In this document: piece by piece, positions 14,803-24,235 of the stretch
How the letters are laid out: every line of letters starts with the position of its first letter
How positions within the stretch are numbered: position 1 is the first letter of the stretch
Source: a virus
Length of the DNA: 25,307 nt
Direction: 5' to 3' (one strand)
IMG/VR virus record: IMGVR_UViG_3300026512_000055
Span: 1 to 25,307 of that record
The notes under the pieces: generated by a model
The model's input: the letters and a program-made list of their open reading frames with translations, nothing else
The model's database searches: none
Told to the model about the DNA's origin: nothing
Translations under genes and position numbers: made by a program

Positions 14803-15069
14803 CTACAATTTTCTATCAGATACTCTTGGTTCTAAATTATTTACAATATTTTCGATATCAGCTTCAACATTATCCGTTTTATGTGACTTAAAAATATACT
14901 TATCGATTTCCCAAAAAATAATTGACCCTATTGCTTGACCCATCATAAGATTTAACCATAGTGGAAGATGTGCTGCTAACACCAACATAAATGGTAACAT
15001 CACCCATGCACTGATTTGCCATCTAATAAAGTAAACACCAAATTTCTTTGATATTAAATCTTTATACAT
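14803..15069 (-). CDS. Two-helix membrane protein, 88 aa
   Basis: Two hydrophobic segments: residues about 14-34 (FIRWQISAWVMLPFMLVLAA) and about 37-56 (LWLNLMMGQAIGSIIFWEID). A charged soluble tail of about 30 residues follows. The layout RWQ(L/I)S near helix one and IGxxIFWxxDxxIF in helix two recalls a small membrane protein type seen in many phages, function unknown; I state this from memory of the pattern. Its start lies within the last codons of the MBL-fold gene (8-base overlap), so they are probably coupled. Confidence 0.75.
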   Translation of the reverse strand: MYKDLISKKFGVYFIRWQISAWVMLPFMLVLAAHLPLWLNLMMGQAIGSIIFWEIDKYIFKSHKTDNVEADIENIVNNLEPRVSDRKL

Positions 15070-15760
15070 TTCGCCAATCCTTGTAAAAATCTAAACTACC
15101 TGTGTGATACTTGATTACTTTATTTTGGTATTCTTTTGAATATTCTAATTCAAAATCTGTTTTACAAGTATGTACATTTCTTGTTACACAATCCCAATTA
15201 CTAAAATCGTGAAAAATAAGGTCACAGTCTTTAGTTTTATCTTCAATTTGTTTATTTGCTTTTGTGTCCGCACTAATGTATATACTTTTTTTATTATGTG
15301 TAAATATAACACCTGTTGTTGATATAACACCATGATATGCTTTGATAAATTCTAAGTTTATTTTATCTATTTTTATAGTAGTATCATACATTGTAGTATT
15401 TATGTTAAACATATGAGCATAAGTATTTTGACATCCAATAAGTTCAGAATCTATATGCTTGAGATAATCTAAAATATTTTCTTTAATATTACTATTACAA
15501 ATAACAGTGGTAATTTTATTATACATAAAATATCGCCAATAAATCAACATTTTAAGATTGCCAATGTGATCTTCATCCATGTGTGAAATAAACACATTTT
15601 CTATTTTTTCGATATCTATACTATCATCTGATTTTAATTTATTCATAATATTAAAACCACAATCAAATAAAATTGTTGTATTACTGTGTTCTATTAAAAA
15701 TGATGAGTTTGTTTTATCAAAATCAAATCCACCACCGTTTCCTAGTTGTTTTACTCTCAT
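15062..15760 (-). CDS. Metallo-beta-lactamase-fold hydrolase, RNase Z/Apyc1-like
   Basis: A 232-aa protein with the MBL zinc motif at residues 60-65, H60-M-D62-E-D64-H65 in ISHMDEDHIG. The expected second histidine is Asp; HxDxDH is known in ComEC-type MBL domains. Further ligands can be placed: H143 in AYHGVISTTGVIF, D165 in YISADTK, and HD at 184-185 in LIFHDFSNW. The HxVxxxGxxF then GDT-like order resembles RNase Z and its relative Apyc1, a phage phosphodiesterase that degrades cyclic nucleotides of Pycsar defence. It is not a full-length ribonuclease Z (no exosite arm visible). Candidate substrate: cyclic nucleotide or RNA. The upstream promoter looks early rather than late. Confidence 0.75.
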   Translation of the reverse strand: MRVKQLGNGGGFDFDKTNSSFLIEHSNTTILFDCGFNIMNKLKSDDSIDIEKIENVFISHMDEDHIGNLKMLIYWRYFMYNKITTVICNSNIKENILDYLKHIDSELIGCQNTYAHMFNINTTMYDTTIKIDKINLEFIKAYHGVISTTGVIFTHNKKSIYISADTKANKQIEDKTKDCDLIFHDFSNWDCVTRNVHTCKTDFELEYSKEYQNKVIKYHTGSLDFYKDWRNV

Positions 15761-20764: not shown

Positions 20765-20953
20765 ATGTATTAATTTATTTATTATTCTAAAAAAACCATC
20801 TAAAATTGCTTCAATGTAATATAATATATTTGCAAGTGTTAATTGTTTTGAAAAATCTGTAAATATATTAGATAATATTACACTTATTTCTGTATTGTAA
20901 TTTAATGACGAGATTAATAATCTTAATACTTTATAGTAGCAATATCTGATGTC
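20765..20953 (-). other. 63-codon open frame without a start codon, past the helicase end
   Basis: A frame shifted from the helicase stays open for 63 codons, 52 of them in the 230-bp gap between the helicase stop and the nrd promoter. It reads ISSLNYNTEISVILSNIFTD, then LTLANILYYIEAILDGFFRI. It has no ATG, GTG or TTG. It may be a decayed gene or chance. The rest of the gap holds no recognisable RNA gene. Confidence 0.25.
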
Positions 20954-22305
20954 CTAGTTATAGCAACATAAAATAATCTAAAAGACAGGTCAATATCATT
21001 TCTCCAAGGTAAATCTGTACTATCTACAAATACTTGTTCTACTGTAGAACCCTGCGCTTTATGACAAGTTACTGCAAAATATTGTTTTACTTCCGCAAAC
21101 TTTTTCTTAAAATCGTAAAAGTTCCTCCATTGTCTACCATCTATCTTTGCTTTTTGTGTTAATTTATCTAATTTTTCTTGGTATTTGTTCATTTCTTCTG
21201 GTTTAATTACACGAAGGAAATTTTTACCAGTTGGTGAATCGAAATGTACTACATATATGTTTATACCCTCATATGTATCTTCTTCTAATTCTTTAATAAG
21301 TACTTCAGCATTATTTTGGGCTATAATTACATCAGGTAAATATGGGTCAAACGCTGGAGATTGCATAACTAATAAATCACCAACATCAAGAAAATTAATA
21401 TTATTTGATTGTTTAAAAATACATTTAGCAACATAGTTCAAAGAGTTTACTGTTTTATTTGTAAATGTGGTAAAAAATGAATTGTAAAATTTGGATTCTT
21501 TAATTGGTTTACCTATATCGTCTTTTACAAAATTATAATATGCTTCTACTAATCCACGAGTGTCTGTAACTACATTAATTTTATCTGTTTTTTTGGAATA
21601 ATCAATTGTTCGTTTAATACAAAATGATGGATTTTTATAATCTTTGTTTTCGATTTTATCAACAATTTCCGATGCTAATTGAATAATAGGATTATCTTTT
21701 GCTTGTCTAACAACTTCATTTAATTTAAATTTTGTAATTCCTGTATCTTGAAATAAATTATACTCTGAATTATTAACTGGTGGTACTTGAAATTCATCGC
21801 CGATTAAAATAATAGTTTCATATAAGTATCTTTGAGATTTTACTAATTTGAATAATGCTTCGTCCATCATAGATACTTCATCTATAAATAAAATTGAACA
21901 TTTTTTTGGTTTTTTAGCATATGAATCTACTTGGAATTCTTCCTCACCTGTTTTATAATTTATGGAAGCCTTAATGTTAAAATATGAATGTACGGTACTT
22001 ACACCATTTAATTCATCAACATTAACATCTGCACTTTCTAATTTTTTGCGTAGTTCTAAAAGTGCTTTATGTGTTAATGCAGTACATTGAATATCTTTAT
22101 CAGATACAGGGTTGTCCTGAAAATATTTTACTAGACTAGCACTTAATGTACTTTTACCCGAACCTGCTTTACCTGTTATTAGTAAATAATTAGCATCAAA
22201 TGCACCTGCTTCGTGGTTAGTAATAACATTTTCAACAATTTTAGTGAAATATGAACCTTGTTCATCGTTTAAATATTCTAAAATATTATTTTTTGTATTA
22301 TTCAT
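20923..22305 (-). CDS. dda: Dda-like SF1B DNA helicase
   Basis: ATP-driven 5'-3' helicase that helps start replication and recombination in T4-like phages. Length 460 aa (T4 Dda 439). Walker A is at residues 45-52 (GKAGSGKS). Walker B follows in ILFIDEVSMMDE, then GDEFQVPPV (motif III). The C-terminal motifs are YFAVTCHKAQGSTVEQVFVD and FRLFYVAITRTSD (motifs V-VI), as in UvrD/Dda-type helicases. The ATG at 22303-22305 overlaps the 89-aa gene stop by 8 bases. It is the last gene of the GNAT/ABC operon. Confidence 0.9.
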   Translation of the reverse strand: MNNTKNNILEYLNDEQGSYFTKIVENVITNHEAGAFDANYLLITGKAGSGKSTLSASLVKYFQDNPVSDKDIQCTALTHKALLELRKKLESADVNVDELNGVSTVHSYFNIKASINYKTGEEEFQVDSYAKKPKKCSILFIDEVSMMDEALFKLVKSQRYLYETIILIGDEFQVPPVNNSEYNLFQDTGITKFKLNEVVRQAKDNPIIQLASEIVDKIENKDYKNPSFCIKRTIDYSKKTDKINVVTDTRGLVEAYYNFVKDDIGKPIKESKFYNSFFTTFTNKTVNSLNYVAKCIFKQSNNINFLDVGDLLVMQSPAFDPYLPDVIIAQNNAEVLIKELEEDTYEGINIYVVHFDSPTGKNFLRVIKPEEMNKYQEKLDKLTQKAKIDGRQWRNFYDFKKKFAEVKQYFAVTCHKAQGSTVEQVFVDSTDLPWRNDIDLSFRLFYVAITRTSDIATIKY

Positions 22306-22569: not shown

Positions 22570-23187
22570 TTAATCCTTTATTATCATAAAATGTGGTTTA
22601 TTTTCTTTTAGTTCCATATTGAAACGGTCTTTGTTTATAGTAAGTGTTTTTTCATCTGTGTTATAAATCCAATCAGGTTGTAAATAAGGTATAACATCTT
22701 GATGTACACCTGCAAACACTACATTTACCATATTTTTATTTCTAATATACTTTTGTATAGAGTTACTTAGTCCCATTGCTGTGTTTCGATCTATAGTACT
22801 TGTAAATTCATCACGAACCATATTAGATTTTAAACTTCTTGCTAAATCAACACGATACCCTTGCCCTTGTGATAATATTCTACGAGGCAATAACCATTGG
22901 GGTACAGAGTTAAACCCAACTGCTTGTAATCTATCAATAGCGTCTTTTGTATTTTTGAAGTGCGAACAAACTGCTTCATTATCATACCATTGTATTTCTT
23001 GTTCCTTGCCAAACCGTTTCAATAATAGTGATTTTCCACTACCACTTTGACCTGTTATAAAACCAATATTAAATTCAAAATCTATATCAAGAATATGTTC
23101 ATTAAATGTGTATTCTTTTTGATATTCTATTGTAAACATATCACATATTTCTTTAGTAATTTTAGACTCTTCTAATTTAACCGTCAT
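22570..23187 (-). CDS. Soluble ABC-type ATPase (COG2401-like)
   Basis: A 205-aa nucleotide-binding domain with no membrane helix. Walker A GQSGSGKS at 46-53, signature LSQGQ at 105-109 (ILSQGQGYRVDLARSL), a degenerate Walker B with DE at 126-127 (MVRDEFTSTIDR), D-loop D133, and the H-loop histidine H162 (VVFAGVHQDVIPYLQPDWIY). DEFTSxxDR and the LQPDWIY ending match the ABC ATPase half of a bacterial and mobile-element protein fused to an acetyltransferase (COG2401). Here the acetyltransferase is a separate gene of the same operon (23423-24235). Function of that protein type is unknown, and it is not a transporter by structure. Confidence 0.75.
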   Translation of the reverse strand: MTVKLEESKITKEICDMFTIEYQKEYTFNEHILDIDFEFNIGFITGQSGSGKSLLLKRFGKEQEIQWYDNEAVCSHFKNTKDAIDRLQAVGFNSVPQWLLPRRILSQGQGYRVDLARSLKSNMVRDEFTSTIDRNTAMGLSNSIQKYIRNKNMVNVVFAGVHQDVIPYLQPDWIYNTDEKTLTINKDRFNMELKENKPHFMIIKD

Positions 23188-23205
23188 TAGTGTCCTTTAG
23201 TATAA

Positions 23206-23295
23206 TTATTTAAGTTTGTTAAGTTCTTTGACTTTATTTATGACATCTTCTATTTCGTAATCACTTTCAATTAAAATTGAAGCAATTATTCTCAT
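23206..23295 (-). CDS. Tiny ORF, 29 aa (possible second half of the 39-aa ORF)
   Basis: Begins ATG at 23293-23295, overlapping the upstream stop as ATGA, and ends at 23206. It reads MRIIASILIESDYEIEDVIN and VKELNKLK. I infer from the ATGA overlap and complementary content that it was once one reading frame with the upstream ORF. Weak support as an independent gene. Confidence 0.4.
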   Translation of the reverse strand: MRIIASILIESDYEIEDVINKVKELNKLK

Positions 23296-23411
23296 GCCAT
23301 TTCCCAACGGTCCTTTCTAACAATAGCACCATCTTCTCTAAACTCATAACCCAAAGGGTCTTTACCCTTAAATTCTTCTTTTCGGAAGTTGTTTTCTGTT
23401 ACTGACCTCAT
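23292..23411 (-). CDS. Tiny phage ORF, 39 aa, REDG/RWE motif
   Basis: Begins ATG at 23409-23411 and reads MRSVTENNFRKEEFKGKDPL, then GYEFREDGAIVRKDRWEMA. The GYEFREDGxxVRKDRWE segment is one I recall from many small phage proteins. In those, as far as I remember, the protein continues with a short helix, which is what the overlapping 29-aa ORF supplies. Located between the GNAT and the ABC-ATPase genes. Confidence 0.5.
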   Translation of the reverse strand: MRSVTENNFRKEEFKGKDPLGYEFREDGAIVRKDRWEMA

Positions 23412-23422
23412 TTAAATTTCCT

Positions 23423-24235
23423 TTATGTTTTAAGTGCTTTAAGTGCTTTGAGTTTAAGTCGTTCTTCTCGTGTAAGTACTTTTCGTTTATTTCGTTTATT
23501 TTGTTGTTTGTACTTTTTATTATCCTTATCACTTAGTGAACCTACAGATAGTTCTTTTTGTGGTGGTAAAACTTTATGTATTATACTATAAATCTTATTA
23601 AGTTTTTTACGAAGTGTTTTGTACTCATCTAAATTTTCAGAAGTAATGTCTTTTTCTAATGTTTTAATTTCTTTTTCTAAATTATGTAATTCTATAGGAT
23701 CAAACAGTAAATCATAATTTAATGTTTGTGTGTAATAATGTCTATACATTTTTTCACCATCTCTTAACCCAGCCATAGATTTTTCATTATGGTCTTTTGA
23801 TAGTTTGAATTCTCTTTGATTGTAGTGTCCAGCAACCCAATTTTTGGAGTTTTCTCTATATTCTCCTAATCTAGGATGATATGTAGCACCATAAACTTTA
23901 AATCCTTGTTTAGTATAAAAATCACTAATACTATTAATCATTTTTGAAGAAATACCTAATCCTTGAAATTCAGGAAGTACAATAGTTCTAGTTAATCGTT
24001 TAGCAGGATATGATGCAATTTGAAACATAACACCTATACAACCAACTAAAATTTCTGTGTTATTATTTGTCCAATAAAAAGTAAAAAATTTAGCACCATT
24101 AGGTAGTGTTTTATCGTGTGGTTTATTAGCGGTCATGTAGTGATAAGGTGCAAACTTTTTCCAAAGATGCTTTTCACCCTCTTTCACTATTAATTCAATT
24201 TTAAATTGTGGAATGTTTTGTAAAATTATTTTCAA
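23423..24235 (-). CDS. GNAT-type acetyltransferase (COG2401-like partner)
   Basis: A 270-aa protein with TTG start at 24233-24235 after AAAAGGA. Residues about 25-130 have the GNAT fold: FAPYHYMTANKPHD at the start, LVGCIGVMFQIAS as the central strands, and RTIVLPEFQGLGISSKM with the acetyl-CoA-binding QGLGIS at 91-96, then ATYHPRLGEYRENSKNW. This matches the acetyltransferase half of the fused GNAT/ABC-ATPase proteins (RxVVLPDYQGxGIG...SHP in bacteria). The C-terminal 100 residues are a basic coiled-coil (EIKTLEKDITSENLDEYKTL, then KLNKIYSIIHK) ending in Lys-rich tail. The acetyl acceptor is unknown. Confidence 0.75.
   Translation of the reverse strand: MKIILQNIPQFKIELIVKEGEKHLWKKFAPYHYMTANKPHDKTLPNGAKFFTFYWTNNNTEILVGCIGVMFQIASYPAKRLTRTIVLPEFQGLGISSKMINSISDFYTKQGFKVYGATYHPRLGEYRENSKNWVAGHYNQREFKLSKDHNEKSMAGLRDGEKMYRHYYTQTLNYDLLFDPIELHNLEKEIKTLEKDITSENLDEYKTLRKKLNKIYSIIHKVLPPQKELSVGSLSDKDNKKYKQQNKRNKRKVLTREERLKLKALKALKT

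What the first reader, a model, noticed from the sequence alone, without database searches (positions are those of the whole stretch)
22570..24235. Split GNAT acetyltransferase / ABC-ATPase pair in a phage early operon
The ABC ATPase (DEFTSxxDR, LQPDWIY) and the GNAT (LPEFQGLGIS, YHPRLGE) each match one half of a known fused protein type, COG2401, seen in bacteria and mobile elements and without known function. Here they are two genes in one operon with two tiny ORFs and a helicase. Seen: motifs, order, shared strand and short gaps. Known: the fusion exists. Inferred: the two proteins act together, perhaps with ATP hydrolysis gating acetylation of a host or phage target, such as a modified nucleic acid or a defence protein.
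Basis: partly seen in the sequence, partly recalled or inferred. Interest (0 to 1): 0.7.

Follow-up and report, generated by a model that had tools for sequence, protein, structure and literature searches.

The report
Split ATPase–acetyltransferase pair in phage
Two neighbouring genes in a T4-like phage encode the two halves of a protein that most other phages make as one piece, probably an ATP-driven enzyme that puts a small acyl group on DNA; the protein type and that prediction were already known, and what is new is that here the halves are separate genes in reversed order.

Summary
Window 22570-23187(-) encodes an ABC-type ATPase and 23423-24235(-) a GNAT acyltransferase. They match the two halves of one phage protein family, PHROG 11143: ABC to positions 8-199 (E 5e-52), GNAT to 202-335 (E 9e-20). 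In most relatives the halves are one protein in the order ABC-GNAT; most others have adjacent genes in that order. The window has the reverse order. It belongs to a four-contig clade: three contigs have GNAT before ABC, one has the genes convergent. The neighbourhoods differ but the pair stays together. The two proteins keep 37 of 43 near-invariant family residues, including every ATPase motif. The ATPase is not SMC/RecF-type by its best family match. COG2401 itself could not be searched. The likeliest function is an ATP-assisted acyltransferase acting on DNA bases. That idea is published for this family (PMC7824862). Support found here: ParB-domain genes next to many relatives, Mom genes beside several, and a mom-like location in two Mu-like phages. 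None of these markers was found near the window pair. Substrate and chemistry remain unproven. Verdict: a new split, reordered variant of a known but uncharacterised kind.

The parts
23423..24235 (-). GNAT acyltransferase subunit, 270 aa (TTG start), first gene of the pair
   Evidence: PHROG 11143 positions 202-335 E 9e-20; Pfam Acetyltransf_1 above cut-off; GNAT fold in AlphaFold2 model, pLDDT 85.8, Foldseek E 2e-6
24134..24154 (-). FAPYHYM, family motif FxxHHYL, presumed substrate site; its His-Tyr is shared with Mom enzymes
   Evidence: F28, H32, Y33 invariant in 82 relatives; hhalign to Mom profile
23948..23965 (-). QGLGIS, acyl-CoA-binding motif A (family usually QGLGIG)
   Evidence: alignments A2, A6
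23426..23698 (-). C-terminal helical, basic extension ending NKRKVLTREERLKLK; found in the window's clade
   Evidence: present in L021 and L270, shortened in L181; absent from the fused relatives aligned
22570..23187 (-). ABC-type ATPase subunit, 205 aa, second gene of the pair
   Evidence: PHROG 11143 positions 8-199 E 5e-52; alignment of 17
23029..23052 (-). Walker A GQSGSGKS
   Evidence: sequence; invariant columns
22861..22875 (-). ABC signature LSQGQ
   Evidence: sequence; invariant columns
22786..22821 (-). Walker B and D-loop MVRDEFTSTIDR
   Evidence: D126, E127, S130, D133, R134 invariant
22702..22704 (-). H-loop histidine H162
   Evidence: invariant
23206..23411 (-). Small gene between the two subunits, read as two overlapping tiny ORFs (23292-23411 and 23206-23307); probably one small protein split by a one-base frame change; not part of the enzyme
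   Evidence: tblastn of the joined reading to LESphi3 P31_4, 54% over residues 1-61, E 2e-12; absent between the genes in L021 and L270
22298..22567 (-). 89-aa protein of unknown function, 2 nt after the ABC gene; neighbour
   Evidence: no family above cut-off
20923..22305 (-). Dda-like SF1 helicase; neighbour, not shown to belong to the pair
   Evidence: PHROG 325 E 4e-76

Best explanation
The two genes encode the subunits of one enzyme, a split and reordered form of the phage ABC-GNAT protein (PHROG 11143). Shown: homology of both halves, retained motifs, close linkage in every relative of the clade, and nesting inside a clade of mostly fused proteins. Inferred: the ABC subunit pairs with another ABC subunit around ATP, holds or opens double-stranded DNA, and presents a base to the GNAT subunit, which transfers an acyl group from acyl-CoA. 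ATP hydrolysis resets or gates the cycle. The product would be phage DNA carrying an acylated base that host restriction enzymes cut poorly, a role like that of Mom in phage Mu but with an ATPase partner. My estimates: the two act as one complex, 0.85; nucleobase of DNA as substrate given that, 0.55-0.6.
For: Both match halves of one family. In phage, viral and cellular collections nearly all relatives are fused ABC-GNAT or adjacent. ABC and GNAT trees give the same three-member clade, support 100; a fourth member came later. The pair stays together although the neighbours differ: DNA polymerase and rIIA-like (L021), terminase (L270), NUDIX-like (L181), nuclease and Dda helicase (window) (names for L021, L270 and L181 neighbours are read from the translations by eye). 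37 of 43 near-invariant residues kept. Fused homologue modelled with pLDDT 93.1 and pTM 0.86, implying a fixed domain arrangement. DNA target: ParB-domain gene immediately upstream in 52 of 68 genome loci and 11 of 19 phages, of the type forming the N-terminus of phage DNA methyltransferases (PHROG 498, E 4e-44). Mom genes (PF25680) directly beside ABC-GNAT in five loci (L071, L246, L248, L183, L244) and within 2 kb in L028 and L081. In two Mu-like transposable phages it follows the tail-fibre genes, where mom lies in Mu (Mu position from general knowledge). GNAT half matches a Mom profile at the HY motif (E 0.003); a generic GNAT pair does not (E 0.41). UvrA, a DNA-binding ABC ATPase, is among the top PDB profile matches. 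Published prediction: PMC7824862.
Against: No Mom gene was found in the window record and no ParB-like gene by the profile built here; 0 of 117 relatives from the first two viral scans have ParB upstream, so the DNA context comes from other branches. The Mom neighbours are few, partly one lineage, and the per-base excess is a rough comparison made with two different profiles. The HY match to Mom is short and its hhalign probability is only 10%. The GNAT model is closest in fold to protein and polyamine acetyltransferases, not to a nucleic-acid one. The window GNAT has Ser where the family has Gly in motif A. No biochemical test of any member was found.
Confidence: 0.5

Rival explanations
1. 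The pair acetylates a protein, such as host RNA polymerase, ribosome or a defence protein, with the ABC ATPase as a regulatory or targeting subunit, comparable in effect to phage Rac.
For: Closest solved folds are protein and polyamine acetyltransferases: NAA80, SpeG, Naa50, NatD. Phage GNATs acting on host RNA polymerase are described (PMC7824862).
Against: I know of no such enzyme with an ABC partner. ParB and Mom neighbours and the mom-like position point to DNA. Generic fold similarity says little about substrate.
Confidence: 0.2
2. The pair acetylates RNA (tRNA or mRNA), working like TmcA/NAT10, where an ATPase delivers RNA to a GNAT that makes N4-acetylcytidine.
For: Same logic of ATPase plus GNAT; a weak PDB profile match of the GNAT half to an RNA cytidine acetyltransferase (9j3c, E 0.06).
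Against: TmcA uses a helicase-type ATPase, not an ABC ATPase; the match is weak and short; the neighbours are DNA-handling genes.
Confidence: 0.12
3. The genes are merely neighbours and act separately.
For: In the window 235 nt and a small unrelated gene separate them; in L181 they lie on opposite strands.
Against: Fused in most relatives, adjacent in all four members of the clade despite changing neighbours, congruent trees.
Confidence: 0.05
4. The ABC protein is a transporter ATPase and the GNAT modifies the transported compound.
For: Many phage records call it 'ABC iron siderophore transporter'; the fold search returns transporter ATPases.
Against: No membrane-permease family among the 25 commonest families listed for viral neighbours; best family match is PHROG 11143. 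All ABC domains share this fold.
Confidence: 0.03

Closest known systems
PHROG 11143 / phage ABC-GNAT fusion (e.g. Leptospira phage LE4, Aeromonas phage PX29, Nonlabens phage P12024S)
   Same: Both domains, nearly all invariant residues, close linkage
   Different: Window has two genes, in the order GNAT then ABC, and a basic C-terminal extension on the GNAT
GNAT coupled with ABC ATPase, predicted DNA-base acyl modification (Iyer et al. 2013, restated in PMC7824862; Tenacibaculum phage pT24)
   Same: Same family: the pT24 ABC protein is aligned here (L004) and clusters near that of P12024S in the tree
   Different: pT24 has order ABC then GNAT; no ParB-like gene near the window pair
Mom of phage Mu (PF25680)
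   Same: GNAT-superfamily enzyme with a His-Tyr motif; same neighbourhoods or genome position in several phages
   Different: Mom has no ABC ATPase; its profile does not match the window GNAT at E up to 1
COG2401 (MK0520, ABC-type ATPase fused to a predicted acetyltransferase domain)
   Same: Same domain pair by description
   Different: Not tested directly; a T5-like relative carrying this name (PHROG 886) is only remotely related to the GNAT half (E 0.002)
TmcA/NAT10 RNA cytidine acetyltransferase
   Same: ATPase coupled to GNAT
   Different: Helicase-type ATPase, RNA substrate, no convincing sequence link

Membership tests
PHROG 11143 (ABC-GNAT) | ABC half matches family profile | tested here: met
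   E 4.7e-52, positions 8-199
PHROG 11143 (ABC-GNAT) | GNAT half matches family profile | tested here: met
   E 9.3e-20, positions 202-335
PHROG 11143 (ABC-GNAT) | Both halves in one polypeptide, ABC first (usual, not universal) | tested here: not met
   Two genes, GNAT first; hence a split, reordered variant. Splits in ABC-GNAT order are common in the family
PHROG 11143 (ABC-GNAT) | Near-invariant residues kept | tested here: met
   37 of 43
COG2401 | Match to the COG2401 profile | not testable with these tools
   No COG library; only an annotation of a neighbouring family
Mom (PF25680) | Match to Mom profile | tested here: not met
   Not among hits at E up to 1; no match in the window record; hhalign E 0.003 with probability 10% on a short motif only
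SMC/RecF-type ATPase | Match to SMC_N or AAA_23 over the cut-off | tested here: not met
   SMC_N E 0.05, AAA_23 E 0.009, both below cut-off
ABC transporter ATPase | Match over a transporter family's cut-off, or permease gene nearby | tested here: not met
   Best NCBIfam score 30 against cut-off 296; no permease among the families listed for viral neighbours
DNA-base acyl-modification system | Modified base in phage DNA | not testable with these tools
   Needs mass spectrometry
DNA-base acyl-modification system | ParB-like or Mom gene next to the pair | tested here: inconclusive
   Frequent (ParB) or occasional (Mom) in other branches, absent near the window pair; window is a fragment

The most novel reading that the evidence does not exclude
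An ABC-ATPase-gated acyltransferase that adds an as yet unknown acyl group to DNA bases, distinct from Mom, and able to work as two separate subunits; to my knowledge it would be the first DNA-base modification machine driven by an ABC ATPase.
Probability: 0.4. Interest if true: 0.75.

Novelty: new variant of a known kind. Interest (0 to 1): 0.45.

Why it matters
The ABC-GNAT protein is widespread in phages and in bacterial and archaeal genomes, yet I found no biochemical test of it. A natural two-gene form keeps the two activities apart, so each subunit can be purified, left out or mutated alone. That makes the question 'does ATP hydrolysis gate acylation, and of what' directly testable. If the DNA reading is right, it adds a new way for phages to escape restriction.

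Tried and rejected
Searching IMG/VR with single proteins found nothing; alignments were needed. Looked for Mom in 50 contigs with ABC-GNAT: 4 of 50, none next to the pair in that sample; the adjacent cases came from other loci. Tried to read Iyer 2013 and Krishnan 2020: not held. Full-text search for COG2401 gave no paper. Searched for a reported acetylated base in phage DNA: no clear hit. Foldseek did not tell substrates apart. A generic GNAT family (PF13302) was sought as a control in 25 phage records and gave nothing, so E. coli SpeG and RimI served instead. Considered and rejected: transporter ATPase, SMC/RecF ATPase, chance neighbours. The two tiny ORFs as parts of the system: rejected, because they are absent between the genes in L021 and L270.

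Full report
What is there. The window is a complete IMG/VR virus record of 25,307 bases. It comes from a T4-like phage with a contractile tail: sheath, baseplate, tail tube and head-closure genes, plus ribonucleotide reductase and a Dda-like helicase. At the stated place lie two minus-strand genes, a GNAT (23423-24235, TTG start) and an ABC ATPase (22570-23187). The order of transcription is GNAT, then ABC.

Family. PHROGs place both proteins on one profile, PHROG 11143: the ABC protein on positions 8-199 (E 4.7e-52), the GNAT on 202-335 (E 9.3e-20). tblastn in phage records finds relatives, mostly fused, in Aeromonas, Vibrio, Streptococcus, Lactococcus, Leptospira, Gordonia, Porphyromonas and other phages. 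All ABC motifs and most conserved GNAT residues are kept: 37 of 43 columns that are at least 93% conserved in 97 fused proteins. The exceptions are V135 to T, C165 to V, L218 to M, V262 to I, G273 to S, and P195, which falls in the linker.

Architecture. Profiles built here were run over all fetched loci. Fused ABC-GNAT: 70 of 80 in the first viral scan, 70 of 77 in the second, 71 of 80 in cellular genomes, 60 of 92 rows in the later scans aimed at the window's own clade. Nearly all others are neighbouring genes in the order ABC then GNAT. These sets overlap, so the numbers describe proportions only. The reversed order was found in only three contigs: the window, L021 and L270 (the latter two were fetched more than once). 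In L021 the genes overlap by 17 nt and in L270 by 23 nt. A fourth contig, L181, has the genes convergent on opposite strands. In separate trees the window, L021 and L181 form one group with support 100, for the ABC protein and for the GNAT; L270 was found after the trees and is placed with them by similarity, gene order and its basic GNAT tail. In the ABC tree the group sits inside a 66-row group (support 99) of mostly fused proteins. The simplest reading is one fission and reordering in the ancestor of this clade. The genes around the pair differ among the four contigs, yet the pair stays together.

The stretch between the genes. In the window 235 nt separate GNAT and ABC. The two tiny ORFs there, joined across a one-base frame change, match a small hypothetical protein of Pseudomonas phage LESphi3 (54% identity, E 2e-12), which there follows a Lar-like anti-restriction gene. 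I take it as an inserted gene, not a subunit.

Structure. A fused relative from the nearest fused group (L022) models at pLDDT 93.1 and pTM 0.86. Such a pTM over 365 residues implies that the two domains are placed firmly against each other; the error matrix itself was not available. The window GNAT models at pLDDT 85.8 with a helical, basic C-terminal tail of lower confidence in part. Foldseek finds ordinary GNAT and ABC folds. Substrate cannot be read from this.

Context and function. In cellular genomes 52 of 68 loci have a ParB-domain gene directly upstream; so have 11 of 19 phage loci, but 0 of 117 loci of the first two viral scans, which include those nearest the window. That ParB domain is the one found at the N-terminus of phage DNA methyltransferases (PHROG 498). 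Mom-family genes lie directly beside ABC-GNAT in L071, L246 and L248 (one lineage), L183 and L244, and within 2 kb in L028 and L081. That is 7 in 1.12 Mb of flanks, against 4 in 4.22 Mb over 50 whole contigs; the two counts used different profiles, so the excess is only rough. DNA methylases occur among neighbours too. In two Mu-like phages the gene follows the tail genes, where mom lies in Mu (general knowledge). The GNAT half aligns with Mom at the motif F..HY (hhalign E 0.003, probability 10%), while Mom against SpeG/RimI gives E 0.41; the GNAT half also carries the classical acyl-CoA motif (E 1.6e-5 to SpeG/RimI). Together this favours DNA as substrate, as Iyer and colleagues predicted for this family (PMC7824862, section 3.4.7). 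I could not open their 2013 paper.

Mechanism proposed. Shown: homology, motifs, linkage. Inferred: an ATP-bound ABC dimer grips DNA and presents a base to the GNAT, and hydrolysis releases or advances it. The nature of the acyl group, the base and the role of ATP are unknown.

Verdict. Observation confirmed. Interpretation partly supported: the pairing is well supported, COG2401 membership is untested, and DNA is the best-supported target. The family and its predicted role are already in the literature, so the novelty is the split, reordered two-gene variant.

Noticed in passing
L006 4953-6010, L013 4938-5983, L015 4905-5905, L019 3869-4923, L003 4794-5908: In Streptococcus, Lactococcus, Oenococcus and Thomasclavelia phages the GNAT frame begins inside the ABC ORF in another frame (-1) and, as far as read by eye, without an obvious start codon: a candidate programmed frameshift that would make the fusion.
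   Followed up: partly
L009 4780-4908; L014 4819-4968: A standalone 42-49 aa protein (PHROG 28816) lies directly upstream of ABC-GNAT in Mu-like phages and resembles by eye the last 40 residues of the ParB-like protein found there in other phages.
   Followed up: no
L014 6077-6694; L018 2312-2962; L009 6035-6508: A formyltransferase-fold gene (Formyl_trans_N) directly follows ABC-GNAT in three phages; it might supply or use a formyl group.
   Followed up: partly
L015 6055-6435; L019 4985-5353: Genes resembling ASCH-domain proteins (annotated so in L019) lie just downstream of ABC-GNAT in two Gram-positive phages.
   Followed up: no
window 23206-23411: Small gene apparently broken by a one-base frame change, related to a protein encoded next to a Lar-like restriction-alleviation gene in phage LESphi3.
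   Followed up: partly
window 15062-15760: Metallo-beta-lactamase-fold protein with a sub-threshold match to the anti-Pycsar protein Apyc1 (E 5e-4, below cut-off).
   Followed up: no
L011 and L020 (phages nickie and Cyrano, about 110 kb): Two ParB-like genes, a divergent ABC gene and a separate GNAT-like gene (PHROG 886, in Cyrano annotated MK0520-like) form a fully split, remote version of the same system.
   Followed up: partly
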